The notes beneath the pieces are model-generated. The model ran no database searches and had not been told where the DNA came from. It worked only from the letters and a program-made list of their open reading frames with translations. From a virus, in the IMG/VR virus record IMGVR_UViG_3300036715_001290, positions 1-64,000 of that record: a DNA stretch of 64,000 bases. The stretch is one strand, 5' to 3'. Positions 39,209 through 60,923 of this stretch are shown one piece after another (position 1 is the first letter of the stretch; the number at the start of each line of letters is the position of its first letter). The translations under genes and the position numbers were made by a program.

Positions 39209-39534
39209 TGGCTGAGGAAATTACAATTGATGAAAAAATAAGCAAGATGTATACAAACAGTAAATGTTCATATTGCGTTCTAAAATTAAATTTCAAAAAA
39301 TATAATCCGGATAATCCATTTTTTGATATAACCTTTAATAAGGGAGTAGATGGTCATCCAAAAACACAAATTTGTCAGTTTCCAGAAGGCGTTAAAACAA
39401 TTAATGATAGAGAAGCATACTTAAAAAAATTTAAGGATATGTTATATATTGAATTAATAGATTTATCAATTAAATATGATAATGAATTAAAGGAAAGATT
39501 AAAAGGAATAGAAACAAAATGTCTAACACAATAA
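39208..39534 (+). CDS. Hypothetical protein
   Basis: 108 aa, soluble, with a CSYC pair (~20-23) and a further Cys near 56. Starts in a TAATG overlap and ends 16 bases inside the next gene. Not recognised. Confidence 0.65.
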   Translation: MAEEITIDEKISKMYTNSKCSYCVLKLNFKKYNPDNPFFDITFNKGVDGHPKTQICQFPEGVKTINDREAYLKKFKDMLYIELIDLSIKYDNELKERLKGIETKCLTQ

Positions 39535-39872
39535 AAATGATGAGCTTGCTTAAAGAAGCTCCAGAACGTAAAGCACCACTATTAAAGACAAGTTCTAATA
39601 TAAATTTTAAGAAACCTGAAGCTAATTGGTTATATGCCGATTGGATATCTGAAAAGAAACCAAACATGGGATTTAGTGTTGTAAAAGTTGGTGATAAAAC
39701 TATTTGTATAGCAGGTTCTGATTCAGGTAATAAAAAAGGTACAAGAGAAGATTATATTCATGACCAAAGTAGACGTCCAATTGGTATAGGTGTAACATTG
39801 GATTCTGCTAAAATAACAAATTTACACCCATTAGCACAATATGGTACATTACCATTGTTTGTATATAAATAA
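39519..39872 (+). CDS. Small protein with capsid-targeting-like leader, function unknown
   Basis: 117 aa. The N-terminus MSNTIKMMSLLKEAPERK contains LKE before Ala, fitting the (L/I)xE cleavage rule of the T4 prohead protease and resembling T4 internal-protein leaders. The mature part is a mixed alpha/beta domain, rich in basic residues. A packaged head protein is a plausible role (inference). Confidence 0.62.
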   Translation: MSNTIKMMSLLKEAPERKAPLLKTSSNINFKKPEANWLYADWISEKKPNMGFSVVKVGDKTICIAGSDSGNKKGTREDYIHDQSRRPIGIGVTLDSAKITNLHPLAQYGTLPLFVYK

Positions 39873-39883
39873 GAAAGTATATA

Positions 39884-40222
39884 ATGAAAATAATGAAATT
39901 ACTTGAAGCTAGCCCTATTGCTTTAACAGATGAGCAAAAAAATAAAATTAAAGCATTTGTAGATAAATTAAAAAAATATGGTGCAACAAAAGTAAAATAT
40001 GAAAAAGAATACCATGTAGTTATATGTGATTCATATAATGTATATTTTGGTAATAGTACATTTCGTCAACATGTATGTTCATGTTTTTCTAAAGAAGATG
40101 CAAACTATATAGCAGATGTCATAAATAAAAAATCAGCAGCCGCAAAGGAACCATCTTTAAAAGATAAAGCAACTATTAAATTAGATGATAGATTAACCTT
40201 TGATATGCATGATTTTGTATAA
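39884..40222 (+). CDS. Small protein with capsid-targeting-like leader, function unknown
   Basis: 112 aa. N-terminus MKIMKLLEASPIALTDEQKN: LLE before Ala matches the expected prohead-protease site and the whole leader resembles T4 internal-protein targeting sequences. The rest is a compact domain with C-S-C near residue 66. It lies two genes from, and just before, the protease. Possible packaged or injected protein. Confidence 0.62.
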   Translation: MKIMKLLEASPIALTDEQKNKIKAFVDKLKKYGATKVKYEKEYHVVICDSYNVYFGNSTFRQHVCSCFSKEDANYIADVINKKSAAAKEPSLKDKATIKLDDRLTFDMHDFV

Positions 40223-40230
40223 GGAATATA

Positions 40231-40866
40231 ATGGGTAATATAATTAAATATGATGCGGAACATCCTTTAATAGAAACAATAGGAACTATAACATATAAAG
40301 GCGATACTAAATTATTAACAGAATCAATGAGTACTGATGAACCTATATATGTAGATACATTATTGCAAATGGCTGATACTGAAAATGGTAATGGTAGGGA
40401 ATATCCTTATAATATTCTTAAACCATCAATAGATCGTTATGCAGCAAGATTTATTCCTAAAAGATCTTATGGTGAATTAGACCATCCTGATAGTGCAGAG
40501 CCTCCAGCATTACAACGTGCTTCTCATAGAATTGTAAAGATTTGGTGGGAAAATAAAATTGAATGTTACGGTCGTCTAAAGATTCTTAACACTCCCCTTG
40601 GAAAAATAGTAAAAATAATATTAGCCGAAGGAGGTGAAGTCGCAGTTTCCTCAAGAGGTGTAGGTTCTGTAGAAGAGTTAGGCTCTGGACTATATCGGGT
40701 TATGGATGATTTTGAAATGATATGTTGGGATATTGTTTCAAATCCATCAACAAAAGGTGCATGGGTACACGTGGTGAATGAAAATCAAAAAATTAATACA
40801 AATATCAATAAACAAAATACAAAGATTGATAATATCATTGGTGATATTTTATCATCATTAAATTAG
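40231..40866 (+). CDS. 21: Prohead core protease (gp21-like)
   Basis: 211 aa, the length of T4 gp21. His85 in GELDHPDS and Ser140/141 in VAVSSRGVG are the catalytic His-Ser arrangement of this serine protease family; the NGREYP segment (~54-59) and LQMADTEN precede it. It degrades the scaffold and trims capsid proteins at (L/I)xE sites during head maturation. Located upstream of scaffold and capsid, as in T4. Confidence 0.92.
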   Translation: MGNIIKYDAEHPLIETIGTITYKGDTKLLTESMSTDEPIYVDTLLQMADTENGNGREYPYNILKPSIDRYAARFIPKRSYGELDHPDSAEPPALQRASHRIVKIWWENKIECYGRLKILNTPLGKIVKIILAEGGEVAVSSRGVGSVEELGSGLYRVMDDFEMICWDIVSNPSTKGAWVHVVNENQKINTNINKQNTKIDNIIGDILSSLN

Positions 40867-40872
40867 GATTAT

Positions 40873-41331
40873 ATGAAATTAATAAATTTAATAAATGAAG
40901 ATTTGAAAGTTACATTAGATATTCCTAAAAATGATCCAAATTACTGGAATGGTAAAGGATTTTCAAATTATAGTACATCCGGAATTGAAACTATTGCAAA
41001 AGGCTTACATAATTATATAAATAAATTTTATAAAAAATATGCAGACAAAGATTTGGTTACTGACTTTAATGATATGCAATTAATGTTAAATGAAAAGGAT
41101 GATGTGATTAAAATAAAATTTGGCGTACAAATGTCATATAATATATTTAATCATGATGTACCATTACCGGTTAAAATATTTGTTAAATTATTAACTAAAC
41201 AAAATATACCATTTATTATTAAAAACGGTGAACATAAAAATTGGCGTGGTAAAGTAATTACCGAAAAATCAATTGATTTTATTACAATTAAAACTGACGA
41301 TTTCTTAAAAATTAAGACATCAAATTTATAA
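40873..41331 (+). CDS. Hypothetical protein, possible capsid-targeting leader
   Basis: 152 aa. The N-terminus MKLINLINEDLKVTLDIPKN has INE before Asp, a weaker match to a prohead-protease site than its neighbours. The body is alpha/beta with no recognised motif. Between the protease and bS21 genes, so a head-related role is possible. Confidence 0.62.
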   Translation: MKLINLINEDLKVTLDIPKNDPNYWNGKGFSNYSTSGIETIAKGLHNYINKFYKKYADKDLVTDFNDMQLMLNEKDDVIKIKFGVQMSYNIFNHDVPLPVKIFVKLLTKQNIPFIIKNGEHKNWRGKVITEKSIDFITIKTDDFLKIKTSNL

Positions 41332-41352
41332 TAACAAACAAAAGAGGTTCTA

Positions 41353-41568
41353 ATGGGTGCACATAATTATTCAAATGCCGGAGTTTTAGTAAAAAATGGC
41401 AATGTTGAAAAAGCACTATCTATATTCAAAAAAAGAATTAAAAATTGTGGTATCATGAACGAGTTAAAAGAAAGAACTCATTATATAAAACCATCGGCTA
41501 AAAAAAGAGCCGCTAAATTAACTATATTAAATAGAATTTCAAAAGAGAAAAAGACAGAAACACAATAA
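41353..41568 (+). CDS. rpsU: Ribosomal protein bS21 homologue
   Basis: 71 aa. The segment VLVKNGNVEKALSIFKKRIK, then GIMNELKERTHYIKPSAKKR, follows bS21 (V.V..N..ve.ALr.FKr....GI..ElrkR..YekPS.kR). bS21 sits on the 30S platform next to the anti-Shine-Dalgarno end of 16S rRNA and affects initiation. Phage copies are known in aquatic phages. AAGAGGTTCT precedes the ATG. It may bias host ribosomes towards the strong SD sites of late phage mRNA (inference). Confidence 0.85.
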   Translation: MGAHNYSNAGVLVKNGNVEKALSIFKKRIKNCGIMNELKERTHYIKPSAKKRAAKLTILNRISKEKKTETQ

Positions 41569-41606
41569 TTATTAATTATTGATAAACTATAAAGGATTTT
41601 TAATTG

Positions 41607-42152
41607 ATGAATGATAATATAATACAACCAACTGGTGATGATTGGAGCAAATGGGGTACATATGTTATAAATCAATTAAAGGAAAATCAAGAGTCTGTAA
41701 AGGATGTATCTAGTAAAATAAATGCAATTCATACTGATTTAGTTGATAGATTATCCGATAGTATTTCTCTAACTGAAAAGGACGTTGCTTCATCAATTCG
41801 TAACTTGGAAGAAAAAGTTGCAAAAATGATTGGTGAAATTGACTTTAAAATTAATACATCATTACAAAACATTCAAAATAAAAATGATAGAATGGTTGAT
41901 GAATTAAAACTTGAAGTTAAATCATTAAAAACGTTTGAAATGAGAGAAATGAACTCAACCATTAATAAGTTAACTGAACGTGTTAGTGGAATAGAATTAA
42001 GTTTAACAAAAGATATTAATAGCATTGATAAAGATGTTAATGGTCAAAAGAATTTTACTTTAGGTAAATCCGCTATTTGGGGTGCCATAATTACAATATC
42101 ATTAACATTATTAATGTCAGCTATAAATTTATTTGTTAAATTTGCAAAATAA
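41607..42152 (+). CDS. Coiled-coil protein with C-terminal membrane anchor
   Basis: 181 aa from ATG 41607 (TTG at 41604 also possible; AAAGGATTTTT precedes both). Residues ~20-145 form a long amphipathic coil; residues ~153-176 (AIWGAIITISLTLLMSAINLF) form one transmembrane helix. The layout recalls XhlA-type membrane-associated proteins. Just before the capsid transcription unit. Function unknown. Confidence 0.65.
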   Translation: MNDNIIQPTGDDWSKWGTYVINQLKENQESVKDVSSKINAIHTDLVDRLSDSISLTEKDVASSIRNLEEKVAKMIGEIDFKINTSLQNIQNKNDRMVDELKLEVKSLKTFEMREMNSTINKLTERVSGIELSLTKDINSIDKDVNGQKNFTLGKSAIWGAIITISLTLLMSAINLFVKFAK

Positions 42153-42193
42153 ATATATAGAATAAATAGAATAAATAATTATTCTATATATTT
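42151..42193 (+). terminator. AT-only 15-bp inverted repeat at the end of the coiled-coil gene
   Basis: AAATATATAGAATAA (42151-42165) pairs perfectly with TTATTCTATATATTT (42179-42193), loop 13 bases. It begins on the stop codon. No T-run of the classical type follows, so it may be a weak terminator, an mRNA 3' stabiliser, or part of the downstream promoter, since its right arm overlaps an ATATTTAT element. Confidence 0.4.
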
Positions 42194-42200
42194 ATATAGA
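42186..42200 (+). promoter_or_regulatory. Candidate late promoter element, capsid unit
   Basis: ATATATTTATATAGA with core ATATTTAT at 42188-42195. It is 139 bases before the scaffold ATG, an exceptionally long leader compared with other copies. It overlaps a hairpin. Confidence 0.3.
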
Positions 42201-42220
42201 TACGAATCAAATCGAAAAAT

Positions 42221-42238
42221 ACATCATATATATGATGT
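42221..42238 (+). promoter_or_regulatory. Perfect 18-bp palindrome in the scaffold leader
   Basis: ACATCATATATATGATGT is its own reverse complement. Dyad symmetry of this size in an untranslated leader suits a dimeric regulator's operator or a small RNA hairpin. It is followed by AAACTTCTAATAAGTTT, a second small inverted repeat. The gap 42153-42333 has no gene. Confidence 0.4.
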
Positions 42239-42333
42239 CATACCAAAAATTAACTGCATTAAACTTCTAATAAGTTTAAAGATTAAATTCATTGTATTAA
42301 CATTATACAATTTTATTGAATTTAGGAGACCCT

Positions 42334-43440
42334 ATGAAAAACACGCTATTAAGAGATGCTATTGCTGATGCAAAGTTAGTGAAGAAACTAGCAATTGACC
42401 AAGCAAGAGAACGTCTTAACGAAGAATTAACTGGTAAAGTTAGAAAAATCGTATCTAAAAATTTGAATGAAGATGAAGATCTTGATTCTGAATTAAATAA
42501 AGATGATTTGGATGAAGCTTTTGAACCAGATGAAGATGACAATCTTGATGAAAATCTTAACGAAGATGACAATCTTGATGAAAATCTTAACGAAGGTGAC
42601 GAGCCTGACGAAGATAATCTTGATGAAGATTTAGATACAACAGATGATGACGAAGATGATCTTGATGATCTTGACGGAACATTTGATGATGAAAACGACA
42701 AGTTAGATGAAGGTACCGAACCTGATGCTGATGATGATATTACTGAAGGTGAAGATCATACTGAACCTGATGCTGATGATATTGATGAAGCATTGTTACC
42801 TGAAGATGAAGACTTTAGCGATCTTAACATCCCAGATGAAGATGAAACTAAAGATGATACTGATATTATGGCTGAACTTGATGCACTTGACCAAGACAAT
42901 GACGGAGACGTCGATGATGTAGATTCAACATTAGTTCCAGAATCTTCAGATGGTACTGGTGATGTAACGGCAGCTGCTGGTGATACTGAACCTGATGCAG
43001 ATGATCTTAAATCTAAATTAGAAGCTGTTGACAAACAACTTCAAGCAACGGTTAAAGAAAATATTAAATTGAAAAAAGCCCTTAAAATTCACGAGAATGC
43101 GGTAACGTATTTAAAGAAAGAATATGCTAAGGTTAACTTATTCAATAGCAAGCTTTATTACACAACCAAAGTATTAAAAGCTATTGGTCTTGATGAAGCA
43201 CAAAAACGTAATGTAATTGCAATGTATGATCGCGCTAATTCACTTCGTGAAGTTCGTTTGATACATGATACTGTTGTAAAGACATTAAACAAAATCAAAA
43301 CAAAAAATCTTTCAAAGATTGCTGAAAGCGCAGGCTCAAGTCGTTCAGTGAAAGTTGTTAATGGAAAGAAACGCGAAGTAATATTCGAAGATAAAAACCT
43401 TAACAGAATGAATCAATTAGCATTCAATGGTAAAAAATAA
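42334..43440 (+). CDS. Prohead scaffold/core protein (gp22-like position), highly acidic
   Basis: 368 aa from ATG 42334 with TAGGAG 8 bases upstream (an upstream TTG at 42316 has no SD). Residues ~45-230 are an Asp/Glu-rich low-complexity region with several DEPD and TEPDADD blocks; residues ~230-300 are a coiled segment; the tail is basic. Immediate position before the major capsid gene and this composition fit a scaffold that the prohead protease later digests. Several (L/I)xE sites occur (LNEE, LDEA, LDEG). It contains a 30-base tandem duplication. Confidence 0.78.
   Translation: MKNTLLRDAIADAKLVKKLAIDQARERLNEELTGKVRKIVSKNLNEDEDLDSELNKDDLDEAFEPDEDDNLDENLNEDDNLDENLNEGDEPDEDNLDEDLDTTDDDEDDLDDLDGTFDDENDKLDEGTEPDADDDITEGEDHTEPDADDIDEALLPEDEDFSDLNIPDEDETKDDTDIMAELDALDQDNDGDVDDVDSTLVPESSDGTGDVTAAAGDTEPDADDLKSKLEAVDKQLQATVKENIKLKKALKIHENAVTYLKKEYAKVNLFNSKLYYTTKVLKAIGLDEAQKRNVIAMYDRANSLREVRLIHDTVVKTLNKIKTKNLSKIAESAGSSRSVKVVNGKKREVIFEDKNLNRMNQLAFNGKK
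42541..42600 (+). repeat. 30-base tandem duplication inside the scaffold gene
   Basis: Two consecutive 30-base copies (42541-42570, 42571-42600), almost identical, each encoding NLDENLNED/GD. A recent in-frame duplication in an acidic low-complexity region. Confidence 0.8.
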
Positions 43441-43467
43441 TTAATTAAAATCACTTAGGAGTGAAAT

Positions 43468-45138
43468 ATGAAAAAAATAAAATATCAAAACTTGTTTGAA
43501 GGCCCAAGCTACGAAGAAAAGTTAGCTGTGTCTACTAAAGGACTTGTTGCGAAATGGCAAAAAACTGGACTTTTACGTGGTCTTAAGACTCAACGTGAAG
43601 TCTCTGCTATGAGCTTAGTTCTTGAAAATCAAGCAAAACAATTGGTTAAGGAATCTTCTTTAGTCAATGGCCCTGGTACTGAAGAGTGGAGTGGTATTGC
43701 ACTTCCATTAGTAAGACGTCTTATTGCTGATATCGCAGCACAAGAGTTCGTTTCAGTACAACCTATGGCTCAACCTAGCGGTCTTGTATTCTTCTTAGAC
43801 TTCAAGTACGGTAGCGGTGCTCAATTAGGCTTTACTCAAAACGCATCAATTTATGGTGGTGATAAAAATGCAGATGGTACTACAGGTTTATTCGGTCGTA
43901 CTAACTCAGCAACTGGTGGTCTTTACGGTGCTGGTCATTTTGCATATTCAATTAACAACTTCCAATCGGCTAGCTTAACAGCAACTGTAACAACTGGTAG
44001 TTGGATTGATGTTAACTTGTCAACTGCTTTAAGCGCATCAGCTGCTGTAAGTAACATTAAGAAATTAGCTGTTACCGCAGGTCCTGAAATTGACGTTTAT
44101 GCAGCACGTGCATTTAACCTTTCATCAGCAAACGCAACTAACGCGGCATTAGTATTCTATCACGACTATACAACTGTTAGTCAAAGTGGTGCTAATTATG
44201 TTGTAACATTTGTAGCCGACGCAACAGCAGCAACTGCTTTAGCAGCAGGTACAAACGCTTTAACACATGCATCTGCTTCAGCAGCATCAGCATGGACATT
44301 GGATTACGTAAAACAAACCACAGCTGATAACCGTGGTGATTTCGAAGATATTTCAGTTTCAGGTTCTTTTGTTGCTCTTGACATCCCTGAAGTTGACATT
44401 ATGATTAAATCTGAGACTGTAGTTGCTAAGACTCGTAAGATGAAGGCAGTATGGACTCAAGAAACCGTTCAAGATCTTCAAGCTTACCAAGCTGTTGATG
44501 CAGAAATGGAATTAACAAACATTCTTAATGAACACCTTGCTCAAGAAATTGACTTGGAAATCTTAGAAATGTTAATCCAAGCTGCTCCAACAATAGACTA
44601 TTGGTCAGCAAGAATCGGTTATGAGTACAATGCAGGTACAAAAACATTACAAAATAATGGTACCAATGCAATGGCTTATACACAACAAACATGGTTCCAA
44701 ACATTAGGTACAAAGATTACCAAGATGAGTAGCCGTATACATCAAAAAACATTACGTGGTGGTGCAAACTTCCTTGTATGTTCACCTGATGTTGCAACCA
44801 TCTTAGAATCTATCCCTGGTTATGCAACCGATGCAGCTGGTGATGAAAAAGAATTTGCTATGGGTATATCTCGTTCAAGTTCATTCAAATCACGCATCAA
44901 GATTTATAAGAACCCTTATTTCACAAATAACGTAATGTTACTTGGTTATAAAGGTACCAGTTTCTTCGAAAGTGGAGCTGCTTATTTACCTTACGTGCCT
45001 TTGATGAGCACACCTGTTATCTATGATCCTGTTACATTTACTCCACGTAAAGGTATCATGACAAGATATGCAAAGAAGGTTCTTCGTCCTGAGTTCTTCG
45101 GCTTAATTGGCGTAGAAGGTATCGACGTTGTATTCTAA
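43468..45138 (+). CDS. 23: Major capsid protein (gp23-like)
   Basis: 556 aa. The N-terminus MKKIKYQNLFEGPSYEEKLA gives LFE-Gly, an expected prohead-protease cleavage site as in T4 gp23. Family blocks: the STKGLVAKWQKTGLLRGL helix (~22-39), NGPGTEEWSGIALPLVRRL, later MKAVWTQETVQDLQAYQAVD..EL and ANFLVCSP. HK97-fold shell protein. Visibly more C-ending codons than its neighbours, as expected for a very highly expressed gene. AGGAGTGAAAT precedes the ATG. Confidence 0.95.
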   Translation: MKKIKYQNLFEGPSYEEKLAVSTKGLVAKWQKTGLLRGLKTQREVSAMSLVLENQAKQLVKESSLVNGPGTEEWSGIALPLVRRLIADIAAQEFVSVQPMAQPSGLVFFLDFKYGSGAQLGFTQNASIYGGDKNADGTTGLFGRTNSATGGLYGAGHFAYSINNFQSASLTATVTTGSWIDVNLSTALSASAAVSNIKKLAVTAGPEIDVYAARAFNLSSANATNAALVFYHDYTTVSQSGANYVVTFVADATAATALAAGTNALTHASASAASAWTLDYVKQTTADNRGDFEDISVSGSFVALDIPEVDIMIKSETVVAKTRKMKAVWTQETVQDLQAYQAVDAEMELTNILNEHLAQEIDLEILEMLIQAAPTIDYWSARIGYEYNAGTKTLQNNGTNAMAYTQQTWFQTLGTKITKMSSRIHQKTLRGGANFLVCSPDVATILESIPGYATDAAGDEKEFAMGISRSSSFKSRIKIYKNPYFTNNVMLLGYKGTSFFESGAAYLPYVPLMSTPVIYDPVTFTPRKGIMTRYAKKVLRPEFFGLIGVEGIDVVF

Positions 45139-45159
45139 AATTTGTTGAAAGATAAATTT

Positions 45160-45191: not shown

Positions 45192-45223
45192 ATTTCAACT
45201 AACTTGTAATAAATCCACATATG

Positions 45224-45239: not shown

Positions 45240-45251
45240 AAAGGATTACAT

Positions 45252-45675: not shown

Positions 45676-47106
45676 ATGCCATATAGTATATACTCTAAAT
45701 ACATTGTTAACGGTGAAGGACAACCAGTAACAGGTTCTACAATTAAATTAGTCCCACAGGCTTTAACATATCCAACAGGTGCTATATCATTGGTTGATGA
45801 TCATTTGGTACACCCAGGTCACTATTATACAACCTCGGCTCCAGATGGTGAATATCAATTATGGATTAATGATGTATTATATGAAGAACATATATGGCAT
45901 GGTGAAAATAGAATAACACAAATATCAAATAAATTCAGTCCTGATTTAACATCATTTGTAGGTGGTATTAATAATATTGCTAATGGTCCATCATCATTTG
46001 CATTTGGTGGTGATGCAACTAGTGGCGGTATTAATGAAGCTAGCGGTTTATGTTCAACAACGTTTGGTGATAGTAATTTAGCAAGTGGTCAATTTTCATT
46101 TGCATTAGGAGTTAGTAATATATCTAGTGGTATTGCTAGTTTTGCATTAGGATTAGGTTCTATATCAAGTGGTAATTATTCATTTGCATTTGGCCCAGGC
46201 ACAATATCAAGCGGTTCATCGTCTATAGCAATTGGTAATTCCTCCGAGTCTCATGGTGATTTTTCTGTAGCTATAGGTCAAGGAAATTATGCAATAGGTG
46301 CATATAGTTTTTCGGCAGGTACATCTACATTTGCATCTGGAAGCGCTTCAACTGCATTTGGTAATAGTTCATATGCAACGGGTGATACTAGTTTTGTTTG
46401 TGGTGATTCAACAAATGCAAAAGGACATTGTTCATTTGCTGGAGGTAGTTCATCAAATACAAATGCTGATAATTGTTTTTCGTTTGGTGATAGTAATAAT
46501 GCAAATGGAATTAGTAGTGTAACAATGGGTACAAATAATAGCACTTATGGTATTAGTTCAGTTGCATTAAATAGTGGTAATAATGCAATAGGGGATATGT
46601 CAGTTGCTTTAGGTAACGGTACATCTGCTAATGGTGTATGTTCTATATCAAAAGGTGACAACTCAAGTACAATAATGTTTGGACAAGAAACTACATCAGA
46701 TGGTTCAAATGTAGGTCAATCAAGTACAGTCGATGTATCAGGTGAAATAGGTGGAAGTTTAATAAACAATACATATAAACTTCAATTAAATAGAACGGTT
46801 AATCAAACATTAACACCAACCGATATTCCATTACAAGGTGGAAAAACATATTTATTCGAAGCTCTTATAAGTACATTTTCAATAGACCCAGGCACTCAAT
46901 ATGCATATAAATTAACATGGGCTTGTACAAGTAGCACAATATTAGGAAGTGTAATTACTACACCTATTTATGCACCAGATAATAATCATATACCTGTTAT
47001 AAGTTTAGCTGGTAATAAACTTATTATAACATGCCCTAAAAAGACTACTGATATTGAAGGTTTGAAGTCATATGCACATTTAACTTTCACGGAATTAACA
47101 CATTAA
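45676..47106 (+). CDS. Adhesin-like fibre protein with YadA-head repeats and shared N-terminal domain
   Basis: 476 aa. Residues 1-~88 match the next protein almost position by position (SKYIVN..G.PV...T.KLVPQA, PG.YYTTSAP.GEY, E.HIWHG), so probably a virion-attachment domain. Residues ~95-335 are YadA-like repeats of ~14 aa (S/A-S-G-x-x-S-x-A-x-G), forming a left-handed trimeric beta roll. The C-terminal ~120 residues are a separate beta domain. Receptor binding is inferred. Confidence 0.78.
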   Translation: MPYSIYSKYIVNGEGQPVTGSTIKLVPQALTYPTGAISLVDDHLVHPGHYYTTSAPDGEYQLWINDVLYEEHIWHGENRITQISNKFSPDLTSFVGGINNIANGPSSFAFGGDATSGGINEASGLCSTTFGDSNLASGQFSFALGVSNISSGIASFALGLGSISSGNYSFAFGPGTISSGSSSIAIGNSSESHGDFSVAIGQGNYAIGAYSFSAGTSTFASGSASTAFGNSSYATGDTSFVCGDSTNAKGHCSFAGGSSSNTNADNCFSFGDSNNANGISSVTMGTNNSTYGISSVALNSGNNAIGDMSVALGNGTSANGVCSISKGDNSSTIMFGQETTSDGSNVGQSSTVDVSGEIGGSLINNTYKLQLNRTVNQTLTPTDIPLQGGKTYLFEALISTFSIDPGTQYAYKLTWACTSSTILGSVITTPIYAPDNNHIPVISLAGNKLIITCPKKTTDIEGLKSYAHLTFTELTH

Positions 47107-50555: not shown

Positions 50556-52103
50556 ATGAATAAATATTTTACTAAACAATATAAAAATACATTAGGTGAA
50601 CTGGTATTAGAAATAGCTAATATATCATCACTAAGAATAACATCGGGTGTTGATGCAATTGCAACTGGAACTGGTTCTGCTGCATTTGGATTATCCGTTT
50701 TATCATCAGGTACAGGAAGTTTTACATCAGGTCGTTTTAATACTGCTTCTGGTGATTTTTCATTTTCATCCGGTGAAGGTAATTTTGCATCTGGATTATA
50801 TTCAGTTGCTATGGGTAAAAATTCTAGAGCATCAGGTTCAAATTCAATTGCAATTGGTATAAATGCAACATCAAGTGGAGTATTTGGTGTCGCTATAGGT
50901 TCTAATGTAATAGCAGGTTCTTCAGCATTTGTTATGGGTATACAATCAATAGCAAGTGGTTATTATAGTATGGTTTATGGTATTAATTGTACATCAACAG
51001 GCACAGCTGCATTATCAATGGGTTCTGTATGTACGGCAAGTGGAAATAATAGTACATCTATAGGTATGTATAATGTTGCATCCGCTGATTATGCTCAGGC
51101 TTTTGGTAAGTATACTTTAGCAAGTGGTACTAATTCAACAACATTTGGTTATTTAACAACCGCAAGTGGCCAATATTCATTAGCTGCAGGTTTAAGTAGT
51201 ATAGCTTCAGGTTTAGGTTCAATTTCTATTGGTAATGGAAATATATCATCTGGAAATTATTCATTTGCAATAGGTACGGCTTGTGTTGCAACTGGTGGTA
51301 CGAGCGTTGCTATGGGTGTTAGTGCTATAGCATCTGGACTCAATTCCGTTGCTATTGGAAAAGAAGCAATTGCTAGTTCAACATCAGCAATTGCTTTAGG
51401 ATATTCAACAACCGCTAGCGCACAGGCCGCATTTGCTGTTGGTCAAGTTTGTGTTGCAAGTGGAATATATTCAATATCAATGGGATATGGTAATATTGCT
51501 AGTGGAAATTATGCTTTTGCAGCCGGTCAAAATAATACTGCTAGTGGGGCATATTCATATACATTTGGATTATATAATACGGCAAGTGGACAAAGTTCAA
51601 CGGCAATTGGTACATATTTAACAGCAAGTTCATATAATACATTTGTTATTGGTTATAATAACGTTGGTGGTGGAAATAATACAGTTTGGGTTGGTACTGA
51701 TTCATTATTTGAAATTGGTAATGGTTATGGTGGTCAAAAATCTAATGCAATGACTGTACTTAAAAATGGTAATGTTGGTATTGGTACAACTGCATCACAT
51801 TCAACTTTACATTTAAGTGGTTCCAAAGCAGAATCAATTGCTACATTAACTGGTACCGCAACAATAACCGCATTACATAGTAATATTATTGCTAGTTCAG
51901 GTGGAGGCCGTGTTGATTTAACATTACCAACAGCTGTTGGAATTGATGGTAGAATTTATAATGTAAAACGTGTTGGTGCAAATAACGTATATGTTTCAGC
52001 ATCCGCAGGACAAACTATTGATGGTACATCTGTACAAACATTATCAAGTGATTATACTAGAATTAAACTTATAGCAAGTGGTTCAAACTGGTATTTATTT
52101 TAA
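50556..52103 (+). CDS. YadA-repeat fibre protein with adhesin C-terminal domain
   Basis: 515 aa. After ~30 residues, about 24 YadA-head-type repeats of ~14 aa run to ~385 (SAFGLSVLSSGTGSF and similar). A neck-like NTVWVGTDSLFEIG segment follows, then GNVGIGTTASHSTLHLSGSK and a C-terminal domain (GRIYNVKRVGANN ... SNWYLF) resembling the end of the protein at 27072-29516. A trimeric fibre is the likely form; no peptidase-type chaperone motif is visible. Confidence 0.78.
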   Translation: MNKYFTKQYKNTLGELVLEIANISSLRITSGVDAIATGTGSAAFGLSVLSSGTGSFTSGRFNTASGDFSFSSGEGNFASGLYSVAMGKNSRASGSNSIAIGINATSSGVFGVAIGSNVIAGSSAFVMGIQSIASGYYSMVYGINCTSTGTAALSMGSVCTASGNNSTSIGMYNVASADYAQAFGKYTLASGTNSTTFGYLTTASGQYSLAAGLSSIASGLGSISIGNGNISSGNYSFAIGTACVATGGTSVAMGVSAIASGLNSVAIGKEAIASSTSAIALGYSTTASAQAAFAVGQVCVASGIYSISMGYGNIASGNYAFAAGQNNTASGAYSYTFGLYNTASGQSSTAIGTYLTASSYNTFVIGYNNVGGGNNTVWVGTDSLFEIGNGYGGQKSNAMTVLKNGNVGIGTTASHSTLHLSGSKAESIATLTGTATITALHSNIIASSGGGRVDLTLPTAVGIDGRIYNVKRVGANNVYVSASAGQTIDGTSVQTLSSDYTRIKLIASGSNWYLF

Positions 52104-52458: not shown

Positions 52459-52695
52459 ATGTTAAGTAAAGATACTATAATAAAAATTGCACATGAATGT
52501 GGAGTTGACCTTGATAAAGTTGGATATGACCAATTTGTTTTAGGATTAAAATCCGAAACTGAACATAAAAATATAGCTGATTTAATTACAAGTGATAAGT
52601 TAACACGATATGTAATTTATGGTATGATAGCGGCTGCACATTTTAAAGAAGATCCTAATTATTATCATAAATTATTAGCCGCAGGTTTATCATGA
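52459..52695 (+). CDS. DUF5661-like small protein
   Basis: 78 aa. The arrangement IAHECGVDLDKVGYDQFVLG, E.EH..., and a final A..HFKEDPNYYHKLL resembles a small phage family I know as DUF5661. No activity is known to me. It overlaps the next gene by 4 bases (ATGA). Confidence 0.6.
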   Translation: MLSKDTIIKIAHECGVDLDKVGYDQFVLGLKSETEHKNIADLITSDKLTRYVIYGMIAAAHFKEDPNYYHKLLAAGLS

Positions 52696-52877
52696 AAATG
52701 ATTGATTTATTAAATGAAATGCCTCATTTTATTTCACAAGGTAAAGGTATTGATTTAAGAATTGAAAAATATGATATATCGGATGAAGAAAAACGTAAGA
52801 TATTAATTGCATTTCAAAAAAATAATTTATATGGTTTTTCTGAAAAAACAATGTTTGGTATATTGTTAAACCTTTAG
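52692..52877 (+). CDS. Small protein with capsid-targeting-like leader, apparently frameshifted
   Basis: 61 aa as it stands. N-terminus MKMIDLLNEMPHFISQG has LNE before Met, similar to the other leader-bearing proteins. The frame ends at TAG 52875 after MFGILLNL. Skipping two bases at 52860-52861 joins it to a frame reading IVKPLGMFRINSS then RIPRGGVQLPDYWEAWVRV, giving ~88 aa. The downstream peptide looks genuinely protein-like. Confidence 0.5.
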   Translation: MKMIDLLNEMPHFISQGKGIDLRIEKYDISDEEKRKILIAFQKNNLYGFSEKTMFGILLNL

Positions 52878-55624: not shown

Positions 55625-55630
55625 AATAAG

Positions 55631-55678
55631 AGGTTATAACCTTAATAATACAACGGCCGTATATTTCATCGGTCGACC
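55631..55678 (+). promoter_or_regulatory. Three perfect palindromes spaced about 20 bases apart
   Basis: AGGTTATAACCT (55631-55642), ACGGCCGT (55653-55660) and GGTCGACC (55671-55678), with centres ~20 and ~18 bases apart, close to two helical turns. A weaker AATGCC/GGCATT pair (55684-55689, 55728-55733) follows. The 135-base gap before ATG 55760 has no gene. Operator array or structured leader are both possible. Confidence 0.35.
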
Positions 55679-55759
55679 AATACAATGCCTTTAGACATCA
55701 TCCAAAGGACGGTTTACGGCATTATAATGTCATATTTTCAATATCAAGGAGTCAAAATA

Positions 55760-56062
55760 ATGAGCCTAATTAATAATAGCACAAAAAACACAGAAAACAC
55801 AGAATTAAAAGAAAATGAAGTTAAAGTTGCAACCGAAATGGTTGATGACATCAAATTCTTAATTAATTCTGGTTTACAATTAGAAACTGAGTGGAAAGAT
55901 GCAAAATTAAAAGAATACCATATTTCATTAGACATATCAAACATAGAAGAAAAGTTACTGGCATCATATAAACGTCGTGATTTACTAGCAGAACAATTAT
56001 CTAAACAATTTGGTAATGGTAACTTAAACTTAGAAACTGGAATTTATACAAAATCTATATAA
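55760..56062 (+). CDS. Small coiled-coil protein
   Basis: 100 aa from ATG 55760, preceded by AAGGAGTCAAAATA. Highly helical and charged (IKFLINSGLQLETEWKDAKL), with a coil at ~25-85. An ATG at 55685 in the same frame lies in a structured region without an SD and is rejected. Located before the sheath gene; unknown. Confidence 0.65.
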   Translation: MSLINNSTKNTENTELKENEVKVATEMVDDIKFLINSGLQLETEWKDAKLKEYHISLDISNIEEKLLASYKRRDLLAEQLSKQFGNGNLNLETGIYTKSI

Positions 56063-56166
56063 TCTTTATTTTACTAAAAATACATTTTTTTATCTGGGAT
56101 TCTATTACAACCTAAATGTAACAAATAATTAAATTTGTAACAATTTTTACGGAGTCAACTCTGAGA

Positions 56167-56243
56167 AGTATAAAAGTCCAAAAATGTCCTTTTATACTAG
56201 AATAGAATTGTGGTTGCGATTCGCAACCGAGTCCTCCGGACTC
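56167..56243 (+). ncRNA. Structured intergenic RNA candidate: three hairpins before the sheath gene
   Basis: The 310-base gap 56063-56372 has no gene. AGTATAAAAG (56167-56176) pairs with CTTTTATACT (56189-56198); GGTTGCG (56212-56218) with CGCAACC (56222-56228); GAGTCC (56229-56234) with GGACTC (56238-56243). The last two hairpins abut with no spacer, allowing coaxial stacking, and are unusually GC-rich. No T-run follows, so they do not look like a terminator. No known RNA family recognised. Confidence 0.4.
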
Positions 56244-56330
56244 CCTGATAGAATATATATTTTTTTATATATAGCTTAATAATAAAGTGTAAATATATTT
56301 ACAGTATAATGATAATATCATACTATTAGA

Positions 56331-56346
56331 TTATATTTATAATAAA
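56331..56346 (+). promoter_or_regulatory. Candidate late promoter element before the sheath gene
   Basis: TTATATTTATAATAAA with core ATATTTAT at 56333-56340, 33 nt before ATG 56373. Same 16-base form as the one before the holin gene. Confidence 0.45.
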
Positions 56347-56372
56347 ATTATTTAATTAAAGGAGGACTATAA

Positions 56373-58676
56373 ATGTCTGATAAACTAATGTCACCTGCTG
56401 TATTTACATCAGAGAATGATAAAACTTACTTACCTCAAGGTGTAGTTGATATTTCAACAGCATTTATAGGTACTACAAAATATGGTAAAGCATTTGTGCC
56501 AACCCAAGTTAAATCACCTCAAGAATTTGATAAATTATTCGCAGATGATAATATTTCATATACTGGTTATGCAGTAAAATCATATCTTAAAAATGCAGCT
56601 TCAGCCCTTGTTGTTAAAGTACTTGGTAATGAAACATCTTCATTAGCATGTTATACATTTGGTGGTGCCGCAAGTGCATCATTTGCTGCTACAAATCCTC
56701 AAGTTGTATTATTACCAACATATAATAGTTCAGCATCAGTAATGACAGGTTTATGTACTACATCATCAAATCAAACATGGGTTCTTACTTCAAGTGCAGG
56801 TAATGTAACCGTATCATTAGCAGATCCTACTTCACCAAATTACATTACAAAAGTATTTGGCCAATCACCTAATTCAAATTTTAACACACCACAAACAATA
56901 ACAGACCAATGGTATGTATATCAATTATACAATGTCGGTACTATAACAACAACTGGTAGTTTTAATTCAGGTACTTTAGGTATTAGTGCAGGATATACAA
57001 ATGCAACTACACCTTATATTACATCACAATTAAATAACGGTAATTCTATTCCATTATTTAAGTTCGGAACTATATTTGATGGTGATTCATCAAATACTTT
57101 AGTTAAAGTATCAATTTGTGATATTAAAAAACCAGCAAGTTCAACTGAATATGGTACATTTACTGTATTAGTACGTGATTTTACAGATACCGATCTTAAT
57201 CCAAATGTATTAGAATCCTTTACAGGTTGTACATTAGATCCTGAATCTATAAATTATGTTTGTGCTCGTATAGGTACACAAACTGAAACTATTAATAATG
57301 CAGGTAAAGTATTAATTGGCGGTGATTGGGAAAATAAATCTTCATATATTTATGTTATTCCTTCTCCACAATTAAAAGATGTACAAAATACAATTGTACC
57401 TTTTGGTCATTCTGCATATACATGGACTTTTATAAGTGGAAGTAACATGTCAAATGTACTTACATCAACATCTTCATTGTATACACAAATTCAAGGTACA
57501 TCTGATACATGGAATCCTCGTGTATATTTTGGTTTGAATTATAGTAATCCAGATGTTAACAATTTATCAGCTGCATTATTAACTAGTTCATTAGGTTCAA
57601 CCGTATATAATTTTAACTTAGATAACTATTCAGTTCATCCTAGTTCAAGTTATGCAACAGGTTCATTGTCAGGAAGTGGTGTTAATTCAGCATTCTTACA
57701 ATTTACAGTTGCATTCCAAGGTGGTTATGACGGTATGCCTTTTAATAGAGTTAGAAACACTGATGAAAATATTACTAGTGCAAATGCATTTGGTTATAAC
57801 TTAACTAATATGTCAAGCCCAGGTAGTACTCAATTCAAATTAGCATTGAATACTCTTCAAAATGCTGATGATTATGATATTAAAGAATATGTTCTCCCAG
57901 GTATTAATGACACAGATCATTTTGCTTTAACAACATATGCAAGAACAATATCATATTTAAGAGGTGGAGATTGTTTTGCTATAATTGACCCTTCAGGTTT
58001 ATCAGCATCTATAGATACTGCAATTGCAGCTACAACTTCAATTGATACAAACTATTCAGCAGGATATTATCCTTGGGTTAAAGTTATAGACCCATCAACA
58101 AGAAAACAACGTTGGTTACCAACCGCAGCTATTCTCCCAGGTGTGCTTGCATACAATGATAGAGTAGGTGGTGAATGGTGGGCACCAGCAGGTTATAATC
58201 GTGCAGGTATTGATAATGCTAAAGGTGTTAAAGATAGATTAACAAAAACAGACCGTGACGTATTATATAATAATAGATTAAATCCTATTATATATTCTAA
58301 AGGTAAGGTTGTTGTTTTTGGTCAAAAAACACAACAAAAGAAAGCATCACAATTAGATAGAATTAACATTAGACGTTTGCTTATAAAATTGAAAAAATTT
58401 GCAGCATCAACAAGTGTTTATTTAATGTTTGATCCTAACACAAAGGCTACGAGAGATTCATTCTTATCTATGGTTAATCCATTCTTAAGATCACTTGTTG
58501 AAAAACAAGGTTTATTTTCTTTCCAAGTTGTAATGGATGAAACAAACAATACACCTGATGTTATAGATAGAAATACTATCAAAGGTGCATTCTATATTAA
58601 ACCAACACCAGATTCTGAATATTTTGAGCTTGAGTTCAATATATTAGCAAATGGTGCTACATTTCCTAATCAATAA
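56373..58676 (+). CDS. 18: Tail sheath protein (gp18-like)
   Basis: 767 aa, near T4 gp18 length plus an insertion of ~100 residues. N-terminal PAVFTSENDKTYLPQGVVDI and FIGTTKYGKAFVPTQVKSPQ with a following EFDKLF; the C-terminal domain includes RLTKTDRDVLYNNRLNPI and later IRRLLIKLKKFAASTSVYLM and FDPNT, which are family hallmarks. It polymerises around the tube and contracts on infection. Preceded by the strongest SD in the window (AAAGGAGGACT). Confidence 0.95.
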   Translation: MSDKLMSPAVFTSENDKTYLPQGVVDISTAFIGTTKYGKAFVPTQVKSPQEFDKLFADDNISYTGYAVKSYLKNAASALVVKVLGNETSSLACYTFGGAASASFAATNPQVVLLPTYNSSASVMTGLCTTSSNQTWVLTSSAGNVTVSLADPTSPNYITKVFGQSPNSNFNTPQTITDQWYVYQLYNVGTITTTGSFNSGTLGISAGYTNATTPYITSQLNNGNSIPLFKFGTIFDGDSSNTLVKVSICDIKKPASSTEYGTFTVLVRDFTDTDLNPNVLESFTGCTLDPESINYVCARIGTQTETINNAGKVLIGGDWENKSSYIYVIPSPQLKDVQNTIVPFGHSAYTWTFISGSNMSNVLTSTSSLYTQIQGTSDTWNPRVYFGLNYSNPDVNNLSAALLTSSLGSTVYNFNLDNYSVHPSSSYATGSLSGSGVNSAFLQFTVAFQGGYDGMPFNRVRNTDENITSANAFGYNLTNMSSPGSTQFKLALNTLQNADDYDIKEYVLPGINDTDHFALTTYARTISYLRGGDCFAIIDPSGLSASIDTAIAATTSIDTNYSAGYYPWVKVIDPSTRKQRWLPTAAILPGVLAYNDRVGGEWWAPAGYNRAGIDNAKGVKDRLTKTDRDVLYNNRLNPIIYSKGKVVVFGQKTQQKKASQLDRINIRRLLIKLKKFAASTSVYLMFDPNTKATRDSFLSMVNPFLRSLVEKQGLFSFQVVMDETNNTPDVIDRNTIKGAFYIKPTPDSEYFELEFNILANGATFPNQ

Positions 58677-58701
58677 TTGAAAAAGATAAAATAAAAATGA
58701 T

Positions 58702-58740
58702 AAAATATGCTATAGTAAAAATATTATAGCATATTTTATT
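58702..58740 (+). terminator. Terminator-like 13-bp AT hairpin after the sheath gene
   Basis: AAAATATGCTATA (58702-58714) pairs perfectly with TATAGCATATTTT (58725-58737), loop 10 bases, then ATTTACTTTTT. Very similar to a hairpin at 31600-31632. Confidence 0.6.
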
Positions 58741-58756
58741 TACTTTTTGTAATATC

Positions 58757-58772
58757 TTATATTTATAATAAA
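58757..58772 (+). promoter_or_regulatory. Candidate late promoter element before the tube gene
   Basis: TTATATTTATAATAAA with core ATATTTAT at 58759-58766, 29 nt before ATG 58795 and directly after the sheath terminator. The same 16 bases occur before the sheath and holin genes. Confidence 0.45.
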
Positions 58773-58794
58773 AAGAATATTAGGAGATAAATAA

Positions 58795-59286
58795 ATGGCA
58801 TTAGGAGTATCAATAGGCCAAGTAAATTTTCAAAATTACGAACCAAAAACTAAATTTCGTTTCATATTTTCGTTTGCTAATACTGGCATCCCTGAGTATA
58901 CTGTTAAAACAGGTGGTAGACCTAAGCTTAGTATGAGTGAGTATAAAGTAGACTATATTAATACTTATCGTTATTATGCAACAAAAGGAGAATGGGAACC
59001 TTTAGAAATAGTATTAATGGACCCTATTACACCAAGCGCAACCAGTGCGGTTATGGATTGGGTACGTTTATGTCAAGATTTTGAAGCTAAGATTGGTGGA
59101 TATAGTGATATTTATAAAAGAGATATTACATTATCAATGTTATCACCTGCTAATGAAGTAGTTGAAATTTGGACATTAACCGGTTGCTGGCCTAAAGCAA
59201 TGGACGGTGGTTCACTTGGATATGCAGATTTAGAAGGCGCTACAGTAGGTATTACATTACGTTTTGATAACGCAAAAACAGAATAA
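58795..59286 (+). CDS. 19: Tail tube protein (gp19-like)
   Basis: 163 aa, the usual length. Contains YEPKTKFRFIFSF, IPEYTVKTGGRPKL, and YYATKGEWEPLEIVLMDPIT, then a tail LTGCWPKAMDGGSLGYADLE, matching gp19 tubes of T4-like phages. Hexameric rings form the inner tube through which DNA leaves. TTAGGAGATAAATA precedes the ATG. Confidence 0.93.
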   Translation: MALGVSIGQVNFQNYEPKTKFRFIFSFANTGIPEYTVKTGGRPKLSMSEYKVDYINTYRYYATKGEWEPLEIVLMDPITPSATSAVMDWVRLCQDFEAKIGGYSDIYKRDITLSMLSPANEVVEIWTLTGCWPKAMDGGSLGYADLEGATVGITLRFDNAKTE

Positions 59287-59295
59287 AAATAAGAT

Positions 59296-59341
59296 GCCTG
59301 CAAGTTTAAGCCCTTCGGGGGTCGCTTGTAGGCGTTCTTTT
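59296..59341 (+). terminator. UUCG-capped hairpin and T-run after the tube gene
   Basis: GCCTGCAAG (59296-59304) pairs with CTTGTAGGC (59325-59333), enclosing CCC-TTCG-GGG (59311-59320), a classical C(UUCG)G tetraloop. TTCTTTT follows. Probably ends the tube transcript. Confidence 0.6.
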
Positions 59342-59349
59342 AATAAAAT

Positions 59350-59497
59350 GGGTTCATGTTTAAGCTCTTAGGAGTTACATGTTCCCGATATTTAAGAAAC
59401 AGGCTGGATAAAACCATTCGGGGATCCCCGCCTTATAGAGTTTATGACTCTATGACATTGTCGAGGAACCAATAGTACTTAGGTGCTGGAGGTTCCC
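59350..59497 (+). ncRNA. Cluster of further hairpins; candidate structured RNA region
   Basis: Within the 261-base gap 59287-59547 (no gene): hairpin 2, GGG..CATG (59350-59358) with CATG..CCC (59378-59386) around CTC-TTAG-GAG, sharing its layout and TTTAAG internal loop with the upstream terminator hairpin; AGGC (59401-59404) with GCCT (59430-59433) enclosing TGG/CCA and CGGGGATCCCCG; ATAGAGT (59435-59441) with ACTCTAT (59447-59453); GGAACC (59465-59470) with GGTTCC (59491-59496) enclosing AGTAC/GTGCT. GC-rich compared with surroundings. No match to tRNA or a known family. Confidence 0.4.
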
Positions 59498-59547
59498 TAA
59501 CATGTTTAATTAGTTATTAATATACAAAAAATACAAAAGGAGTTATA

Positions 59548-60360
59548 ATGGCAGACACAATATTGCCTAATCCAACAAACACAGAGCAATCGGCATTTGA
59601 ATTAATAGATTTACCTTCAGGTGGATATTTTTATAAACCAGAATCACCTTTAGCTAGTGGTAAAATAAAATTAAGATACCCAACAACAAAACAAGAAGAT
59701 ATCTTATTATCTCAAAATTTATTACAACAAGGTATAGCTGTTGATGAATTTATTAAATCATTAATAATAGAATTGATTGATTATAATGAAATTTTATTAG
59801 CCGATGTACGCGGTTTAATGTATGCATCAAGAATTTTACTTTATGGTCCAAATTTTGATACTGAAATACAATGTCCATCATGTAAAAGAAAAACACCAAA
59901 ATCATTTGATTTATCATTAGTTGATTTCGTTGAAAAAGATTATGAAGGATTAGGTTTTCAACGTGGTGAGAATTTATTTTCATTTACAACATCAAATGGT
60001 ATTTCTATAAAATTTTCATTACCAACAAATGGTGATGAATTAAGAATTAAAGGATATGTAAATGCTATTGGTGGAGGTAGAAATAAAACAACTAATGAAT
60101 TATCACCATCCGTTAGATTATCATTTGCTATTAAAGAAATAATTGAACCTAATAGTAATGTTGTTATTAAAGGTCAACCTCAAATATATAAGTACTTAAC
60201 AAATACTTTTAGATCACAACAATCAAAAGAACTTCGTGATTATATTGAAAAAATATCACCTAACGTAAATATTAAAAGTACATTTGAATGTGATCATTGT
60301 ACGTATAGTGATGATAGGTTCTCAATACCTATAGACAAAAACTTTTTTTGGCCACAGTGA
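59548..60360 (+). CDS. 26: Baseplate hub protein, gp26-like
   Basis: 270 aa. Contains FELIDLPSGGYFYKPESPLA, a CPSC (~111-114) and CDHC (~249-252) zinc-ribbon pair of Cys, and LPTNGDELRIKGYV. This is the pattern of the T4 gp26-type baseplate family (PSxGxxYP...C..C...), as I recall it. T4 gp26 helps assemble the hub. AAAAGGAGTTATA precedes the ATG. The TGA stop is inside a hairpin that precedes the next ORF. Confidence 0.75.
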   Translation: MADTILPNPTNTEQSAFELIDLPSGGYFYKPESPLASGKIKLRYPTTKQEDILLSQNLLQQGIAVDEFIKSLIIELIDYNEILLADVRGLMYASRILLYGPNFDTEIQCPSCKRKTPKSFDLSLVDFVEKDYEGLGFQRGENLFSFTTSNGISIKFSLPTNGDELRIKGYVNAIGGGRNKTTNELSPSVRLSFAIKEIIEPNSNVVIKGQPQIYKYLTNTFRSQQSKELRDYIEKISPNVNIKSTFECDHCTYSDDRFSIPIDKNFFWPQ

Positions 60361-60379
60361 GGGATATAAAGCCTCACTG
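60355..60379 (+). promoter_or_regulatory. Hairpin covering a stop codon and abutting the next ATG
   Basis: CAGTGAGG (60355-60362) pairs with CCTCACTG (60372-60379), loop 9 bases. TGA of the hub gene (60358-60360) is in the left arm; ATG 60380 follows the right arm at once. Ribosomes finishing the hub gene would melt the hairpin, so translational coupling is likely. Confidence 0.45.
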
Positions 60380-60544
60380 ATGGACTTGATATTTACTCTT
60401 ATATATAATTCTAATGGTGGATTTACATTTAATGATGTATATAATATGCCAGTTTATATGAGAGATAATTTCCTTAGCCTTTTGAATAAACAAAAGGAAA
60501 AAGAAGAGGCAGCCATCGCCGCAGCTAAGGGAAAACAAAAATAA
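60380..60544 (+). CDS. Short protein downstream of the hub gene (54 aa)
   Basis: 54 aa: MDLIFTLIYNSNGGFTFNDV, then YNMPVYMRDNFLSLLNKQKE and a Lys/Glu/Ala tail ending KGKQK. The layout (DVYxMPxYxRxFY helix plus charged tail) resembles the second, C-terminal part of small tail-assembly proteins that follow gp26-like genes. No independent SD is seen; expression probably depends on the hub gene. The codon pattern and the terminator directly after it support a real gene. Confidence 0.6.
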   Translation: MDLIFTLIYNSNGGFTFNDVYNMPVYMRDNFLSLLNKQKEKEEAAIAAAKGKQK

Positions 60545-60554
60545 TACTTAATTA

Positions 60555-60583
60555 AAAGGCCACTCAGAAATGTTGTGGCCTTT
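60555..60583 (+). terminator. Terminator-like hairpin after the 54-aa gene
   Basis: AAAGGCCAC (60555-60563) pairs with GTGGCCTTT (60575-60583), loop 11. The T-run is short (TTTAATGTTT). A GACAATTGTC palindrome follows at 60593-60602. Confidence 0.6.
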
Positions 60584-60608
60584 AATGTTTAAGACAATTG
60601 TCAATTCA

Positions 60609-60624
60609 TAATATTTATAAATAG
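60609..60624 (+). promoter_or_regulatory. Candidate late promoter element
   Basis: TAATATTTATAAATAG with core ATATTTAT at 60611-60618, 30 nt before ATG 60648. It contains TATTTATA, the reverse complement of the T4 late core TATAAATA; the T4 core itself, TATAAATA, also occurs in the forward direction two bases on (60616-60623). Confidence 0.4.
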
Positions 60625-60647
60625 ACACATCAAACAAGGATATATAA

Positions 60648-60923
60648 ATGAAATTAACACAAGTTATACATAAAAGTCAATTAATAACTGAAGGATTATT
60701 GTCTAATTTTATTAGTAATCTTTTCTTTAAGGTTAATGGTAAAAGATTAGAAAAGGATTTAGCATCTTCCGATTTAGCATTGAAATATCCTGATGAAACT
60801 AAAAAGTTATTAGCATCAACAAAGAAATTACAAAGTGTTTTTGATACTTATAAAAATGAAATTGCAGCTGACCCAAAATTAGCAGAATTAGTAAGTAAGT
60901 TATCAAAAAAATGGGAAATATAA
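60648..60923 (+). CDS. Small protein with capsid-targeting-like leader, function unknown
   Basis: 91 aa, helical. N-terminus MKLTQVIHKSQLITEGLLSN: ITE before Gly is a good (L/I)xE prohead-protease site. The rest is a short basic helical domain. It lies before the tape measure, where a chaperone is also possible, so the capsid role is uncertain. Confidence 0.6.
   Translation: MKLTQVIHKSQLITEGLLSNFISNLFFKVNGKRLEKDLASSDLALKYPDETKKLLASTKKLQSVFDTYKNEIAADPKLAELVSKLSKKWEI

What the first reader, a model, noticed from the sequence alone, without database searches (positions are those of the whole stretch)
39519..60923. A set of small proteins with T4-style capsid-targeting leaders
T4 internal proteins carry a short N-terminus cut by gp21 after (I/L)xE. 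Here MSNTIKMMSLLKE|A (39519), MKIMKLLE|A (39884), MKLINLINE|D (40873), MKMIDLLNE|M (52692) and MKLTQVIHKSQLITE|G (60648) all share such a leader. The major capsid protein has MKKIKYQNLFE|G. Three of these genes sit next to the prohead protease. They may be packaged and injected effectors with differing mature domains. MKLLE in the alarmone-hydrolase-like protein (35784) is a weaker case.
Basis: partly seen in the sequence, partly recalled or inferred. Interest (0 to 1): 0.72.

Follow-up and report, generated by a model that had tools for sequence, protein, structure and literature searches.

The report
Capsid-packaging tags on unrelated phage proteins
At least nine unrelated proteins of this uncultured T4-like phage, and dozens in its relatives, start with a short removable tag like the one T4 uses to load proteins into its head, so the tag can be used to find proteins that these phages probably carry in and inject into bacteria.

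Summary
A leader K-phi-x-x-phi-phi-x-E (phi = hydrophobic) opens 9 of 182 ORFs of this 140-kb T4-like phage record; about 0.3 are expected and 0 of 2000 shuffles reach 9. Four are in the window, five outside it. Two control phages without an S77 prohead protease have none.

The spacing matches the T4 residues needed for capsid targeting (4, 7) and cleavage (8, 10), and a generalised motif recovers T4 gp24, IPII, IPIII and Alt. This phage and its relatives carry the tag on about 43 mature families without mutual similarity. A SAM-lyase-like family keeps [L/I/F]xE| directly before its domain in phages of very different hosts although the leader varies from 10 to 31 residues; all eight such records searched encode an S77 protease.

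Corrections: the capsid-protein site at E11 is not supported (T4 alignment gives E62); MKLLE at 35784 is inconclusive; MKIMKLLE at 39884 is a plausible short form. The genes beside the protease may be prohead-core parts; effector-type cargo (NUDIX, 2H-like; SAM-lyase- and ART-like in relatives) lies elsewhere. Packaging, cleavage and injection are inferred; no virion proteomics was available.

The parts
39519..39557 (+). Leader MSNTIKMMSLLKE| of the 117-aa ORF 39519-39872
   Evidence: Strict motif KMMSLLKE; ORF confirmed; mature part has no confident family
39884..39907 (+). Leader MKIMKLLE| of the 112-aa ORF 39884-40222 (short form, lacks one residue of the spacing)
   Evidence: LxE met, strict motif not met; same short form in a possible G001 relative of 52692
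40873..40899 (+). Leader MKLINLINE| of the 152-aa ORF 40873-41331
   Evidence: Strict motif; no phage homolog by tblastn
52692..52718 (+). Leader MKMIDLLNE| of the 61-aa ORF 52692-52877
   Evidence: Strict motif; possible relative in G001 MKMKKIME|MPH, E 0.004
60648..60692 (+). Leader MKLTQVIHKSQLITE| of the 91-aa ORF 60648-60923 (form with insertion)
   Evidence: Insertion form of the motif, shared with 80601 MKLSSVIAAPAVIQE|
40231..40866 (+). Prohead protease (Peptidase S77, gp21-like); its own N-terminus has PLIE(15)|T, resembling T4 LLIE(9)|T
   Evidence: PF03420 E 2e-19; phrog_207 5e-41
43468..43653 (+). Predicted propeptide of the major capsid protein: cut after E62 (QLVKE|SS), not after E11
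   Evidence: Alignment with T4 gp23 and about 60 relatives; Glu invariant in the clade with V/I/L at P3; T4 gp23 loses 65 residues (PMC9958956)
39035..39103 (+). Possible additional leader ...KDLLDE(23)|MTSSGA on the 57-aa ORF 39035-39208
   Evidence: Relatives keep LxE|M before a conserved T-G-x-x-x-G-Y-x-T-P segment; weaker evidence
35784..35798 (+). MKLLE at the start of the HD (SpoT-like) hydrolase: inconclusive as a leader
   Evidence: HD_4 E 3e-7, RelA/SpoT 2e-11; homolog in Vibrio phage pv27 starts at the domain without this extension, Aes012 has a different N-terminus
36285..38090 (+). Portal (gp20-like), marks the T4-like head module
   Evidence: Portal_T4 E 1e-68
42334..43440 (+). 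Scaffold (gp22 position), homologous to the scaffold-position ORF of relatives
   Evidence: Local blastp to 55 ORFs of relatives

Best explanation
The leaders are propeptides for the phage's S77 prohead protease that also act as capsid-targeting sequences. While the prohead assembles, hydrophobic positions of the leader bind the scaffold core and draw the protein inside. The protease then cuts after the Glu of phi-x-E, frees the mature protein, and the leader is lost. Proteins beside the protease probably include prohead-core parts. Those scattered in the genome (NUDIX hydrolase, 2H-phosphoesterase-like protein and others) are probably carried in the head and injected with the DNA, as T4 IPs and Alt are. 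Shown here: the motif, its enrichment, the protease, recovery of T4 substrates, conserved junctions in orthologs. Inferred: core binding, cleavage, packaging, injection and effector function.
For: Enrichment 9/182 vs 0.3, five hits outside the window. Same tag on 43 mature clusters with no mutual BLAST match at E 1e-3. A generalised form run on T4 gives 10 hits including gp24, IPII, IPIII and Alt; T4 gp24 loses exactly 10 residues (PMC9958956), i.e. MAKINELLRE. The spacing equals T4 CTS residues 4, 7 (targeting) and 8, 10 (processing) (PMC9026906). SAM-lyase-like family: leaders of 10-31 aa, all ending [LFI]xE| before (S/K)(S/G)[LI][SAN]R; the protease is in every such record searched: G003, G006, G007, Mel-JY01, Slicko01, CPt10, Lak-C1, Lak-B5. 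Family 22 behaves likewise. MCP site conserved in phi-x-E form. Leader codons vary synonymously, pointing to selection on the protein.
Against: No mass spectrometry of any virion of this clade was available. The invariant Glu at the junction could belong to the mature domain; no leaderless homolog from a phage without the protease was found to test this. The generalised motif also hits unrelated T4 genes (mobB, ligase, I-TevIII) and the strict one at least one probable exonuclease in G009, so a single hit is not proof. Most cargo in the window matches no known family. ART assignments in relatives are below Pfam's cut-offs.
Confidence: 0.78

Rival explanations
1. The tagged proteins beside the protease are prohead-core or scaffold parts (gp67/gp68-like) that are cut and expelled during maturation, not injected effectors. 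(This can be true for these genes while the main explanation holds for the others.)
For: 39519, 39884 and 40873 lie between portal and scaffold, where T4 has 67-68-21. In relatives that interval holds ORF families conserved across many phages with similar leaders (families 0 and 10). T4 core proteins are gp21 substrates (PMC9026906).
Against: Does not fit tagged genes far from the head module (80-82 kb, 99.5 kb; tens of kb away in G003, G004, G006, G007) or enzyme cargo such as NUDIX and SAM-lyase-like proteins.
Confidence: 0.45
2. The leaders are ordinary N-terminal amphipathic helices or a tag for another destination (membrane, tail, host factor), and the likeness to the protease motif is incidental.
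For: K/L/I/E-rich starts are easy to make in an AT-rich genome; no cleavage has been shown; the first hydrophobic positions alone could serve other binding.
Against: Shuffled N-termini and internal Met starts do not give the motif; absent from two phages without the protease; junction phi-x-E| is kept while the rest of the leader diverges; T4 hits are enriched in true substrates.
Confidence: 0.12
3. Chance: the reader picked matching starts from many small ORFs.
For: The short (I/L)xE rule alone is common; MKLLE (35784) and the MCP site at E11 do look like chance or misreading.
Against: 0/2000 shuffles reach the observed count and five further members appear outside the region read.
Confidence: 0.02

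Closest known systems
T4 capsid-targeting sequence of IPI/IPII/IPIII and the Alt propeptide, cut by gp21
   Same: Short N-terminal leader on mutually unrelated proteins; phi-x-x-phi-phi-x-E spacing as in IPII, IPIII, gp24 and Alt; S77 protease in the same genome; some cargo enzymatic, as Alt is.
   Different: Consensus MK(L/I)xxLLxE rather than MKTYQEFIAE; different, mostly uncultured T4-superfamily clade; cargo includes NUDIX, 2H-like and, in relatives, SAM-lyase- and ART-like domains; packaging not shown.
T4 gp24 propeptide (MAKINELLRE|S)
   Same: Closest leader by sequence; the only T4 hit with the strict motif.
   Different: gp24 is a shell vertex protein; the proteins here are small and varied.
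Phage P1 DarB capsid-targeting signal (PMC9024508)
   Same: N-terminal signal that loads an anti-restriction protein into a head and can carry foreign cargo.
   Different: Different phage and head system; the phi-x-E leader described here was not tested in P1.
phiKZ / SPN3US ejection proteins (PMC9026906)
   Same: Head proteins cut after Glu by a diverged gp21-like protease.
   Different: Motif S/A-x-E in phiKZ; not the short tag seen here.

Membership tests
T4-type capsid-targeting propeptides (prohead-protease substrates) | N-terminal leader ending in (L/I)xE | tested here: met
   9 ORFs with the extended motif, P3 is L or I in all nine; 39884 with the short form
T4-type capsid-targeting propeptides (prohead-protease substrates) | Hydrophobic/aromatic residues at the positions needed for targeting (T4 residues 4 and 7) | tested here: met
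   Same spacing phi-x-x-phi-phi-x-E (T4 data from PMC9026906); effect of mutating them here unknown
T4-type capsid-targeting propeptides (prohead-protease substrates) | Genome encodes a gp21-type (S77) protease | tested here: met
   PF03420 E 2e-19
T4-type capsid-targeting propeptides (prohead-protease substrates) | Mature parts unrelated while the leader is shared | tested here: met
   All nine own tagged proteins fall in separate mature clusters (BLAST E 1e-3); remote structural relation not excluded
T4-type capsid-targeting propeptides (prohead-protease substrates) | Leader removed during head maturation | not testable with these tools
   Only indirect: conserved phi-x-E junction in orthologs
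T4 internal proteins (injected effectors) | Mature protein inside the virion and injected | not testable with these tools
   No virion proteomics for this clade; supplementary table of the Campylobacter phage IBB_35 proteome could not be opened
   Relatives lack it; the homologous T4 site falls after E62
2H phosphoesterase superfamily (99517, outside the window) | Two Hx[ST] motifs | tested here: met
   HMT at 43, HIT at 91; but PF08302 E 3e-4 is below its cut-off, so membership is tentative

The most novel reading that the evidence does not exclude
A widespread group of environmental T4-superfamily phages carries a modular, tag-loaded arsenal of ready-made enzymes (SAM lyases, ADP-ribosyltransferases, NUDIX and 2H hydrolases) that are injected with the DNA to disarm host defences before any phage gene is expressed, and the tag alone is enough to predict them.
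Probability: 0.5. Interest if true: 0.75.

Novelty: new variant of a known kind. Interest (0 to 1): 0.6.

Why it matters
Proteins that phages inject with their DNA are the earliest counter-measures against bacterial immunity, and in T4 only a few are understood: Ip1-3 each block a different GmrSD restriction enzyme and share only the leader (PMC12373910). A leader motif that works in a large, mostly uncultured clade would turn the search for such proteins into a sequence scan: 43 tagged mature clusters came out of this phage, 13 longer contigs of relatives, immuto and the head regions of about 80 contigs. It also offers candidate short tags for loading chosen proteins into these phage heads.

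Tried and rejected
AlphaFold2 on 39519 and 39884 without homologs gave pLDDT 35 and 40, so no fold search was made. Searches for relatives of 80020 and 39519 in viral contigs returned nothing, or only a contig 100% identical to this phage. tblastn of 40873 in phages: no match. Pfam/PHROG hits of 39519, 39884, 40873, 52692 and 60648 are all at chance level. PADLOC hits (PtuA, Csn2) for 39519 and 39884 are chance level. No convincing relative of the SAM-lyase-like or 2H-like protein by sequence in the PDB. Published CP220 virion bands do not obviously include the SAM-lyase-like protein, but only 11 bands were sequenced. MCP leader at E11 rejected. Regulatory (DNA-level) conservation of the leader judged unlikely because codons differ.

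Full report
The window is the first 64 kb of a 140,489-base IMG/VR virus record. It holds a T4-like head module: portal (Portal_T4 E 1e-68), S77 prohead protease (E 2e-19), a scaffold-position ORF and a gp23-type major capsid protein (E 2e-69). The nearest MCPs in annotated phages are in an uncultured phage, Microcystis phage Mel-JY01, Flavobacterium phage immuto and Rhodothermus phage RM378, about 40-51% identical. 80 IMG/VR contigs were fetched by MCP: one is 100% identical, the next 57%, the rest about 45-51%.

Observation. The five ORFs exist as described. Listing every ORF of the whole record showed the same start at 80020 (MKLICLLNE|K), 80601 (MKLSSVIAAPAVIQE|V), 81135 (MKLNSVIKE|Y), 81536 (MKLNTLLKE|A) and, on the minus strand, 99517 (MKLITLLKE|Y).

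Statistics. Own record 9/182 ORFs, expected 0.31 from internal positions, P 5e-11; shuffles of residues 2-21: mean 0.34, none of 2000 at 9 or more; starts at internal Met 1/668. Relatives: G004 7/139, G006 10/199, G007 6/131, G003 5/152, all P below 2e-5; others have 0-3. Some of these relatives share homologous tagged genes, so they are not fully independent. crAss001 0/100 and phi38:1 0/78; neither has an S77 protease. ORFs came from a simple longest-ORF picker with ATG starts, which may miss or mis-start genes.

Positive control. With a more general form (phi or Y/W, x, x, phi, phi, x, E) T4 gives 10 hits in 238 ORFs (expected 2.9): gp24, IPII, IPIII, Alt, gp2, 61.1 and four that look like noise. 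gp24 is reported to lose its first 10 residues to the protease (PMC9958956), which is exactly MAKINELLRE. In IPIII the capsid-targeting function maps to residues 4 and 7 and processing to 8 and 10 (PMC9026906), the same spacing as the hydrophobic and Glu positions here.

Cleavage evidence. In the MCP alignment the T4 site FLTE|A falls on Q-[LI]-[VIL]-x-E|[SA], with Glu invariant in the relatives except RM378. For cargo, the best case is the SAM-lyase-like family (PF23780 E 1e-10): G006 MSKLSNILKE|SGLSR, G003 MAKLKHLLPDKQLNE|SGLAR, Mel-JY01 MQFKQYILGE|SSLSR, Alishewanella Slicko01 ...INALSE|SSLSR, Campylobacter CPt10/CP220 ...FNE|SSL[SA]R, Lak-C1 ...NELNE|KSLNR, Lak-B5 ...TINE|SSINR. Leaders differ in length and sequence; only phi-x-E at the junction stays. 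The protease is in all eight records searched: G003, G006 and G007 and Mel-JY01, Slicko01, CPt10 and the two Lak phages. CP220 is reported to have a gp21 homolog (PMC2853527). Family 22 shows 24-30 residue leaders ending phi-x-E|[GSA] in most members. The Glu could still be part of the mature domain; no leaderless homolog was available to exclude this.

Cargo. Own: NUDIX at 80020 (PF00293 E 3e-15; nearest to ADP-ribose-type Nudix domains), 2H-phosphoesterase-like at 99517 (HMT...HIT; Pfam below cut-off), the rest without family. Relatives: SAM-lyase-like (1e-10), three weak ART-like matches below Pfam cut-offs (3e-4, 2e-3, 0.011), an alpha/beta hydrolase (3e-5, just below cut-off), a beta-flower protein (3e-14). 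T3 SAMase is a known counter-defence enzyme (PMC7877911 abstract) and T4 Alt is a packaged ADP-ribosyltransferase (T4 record note), so effector roles are a reasonable inference, not a result.

Role near the protease. T4's order is 20-67-68-21-22-23. Here 38149, 39035, 39208, 39519 and 39884 lie between portal and protease, and 40873 after it. Core-protein roles are therefore about as likely for those as effector roles. ORF 39035 may be one more substrate (LLDE|M).

What is known. The idea that the CTS lets T4-like phages package varied proteins is published (PMC9026906, PMC3012670), and Ip1-3 share only their leader (PMC12373910). Seven literature searches turned up no description of this leader in this clade, but the library lacks most subscription journals. 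I therefore rate it a new variant of a known kind.

Noticed in passing
window 41353-41568 (+): ORF encodes ribosomal protein bS21 (PF01165 E 3e-13) between the protease and the scaffold; Mel-JY01 has an RpsU annotated at the corresponding place.
   Followed up: no
L089:18966 (-), T4 gene 61.1; L090:26061 (-), T4 gene 2: T4 gp61.1 starts MKTFKEFIKE|D and gp2 starts MAIFQIINE|S, both matching the general leader motif; possible unrecognised gp21 substrates.
   Followed up: no
window 45676-47106 and 50556-52103 (+): Two proteins built of repeated S-x-A-x-G / ASG units resembling YadA-type head repeats, in the structural region (by eye).
   Followed up: no
window 40231-40275 (+): Protease N-terminus PLIE|T resembles the proposed T4 autocleavage site LLIE|T; several relatives have LLVD at the matching place.
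   Followed up: partly
L095:1803, L086:11737 and L086:10736 (immuto): Several immuto proteins share a different N-terminal stretch, F(D/N)LxxFLxENxLTxNS, which may be another tag.
   Followed up: no
L002:13540 and L003:12015 (record positions 77039 and 95014): By eye, a QueC-like and a KdsC-like phosphatase N-terminus in the same genome; not searched.
   Followed up: no
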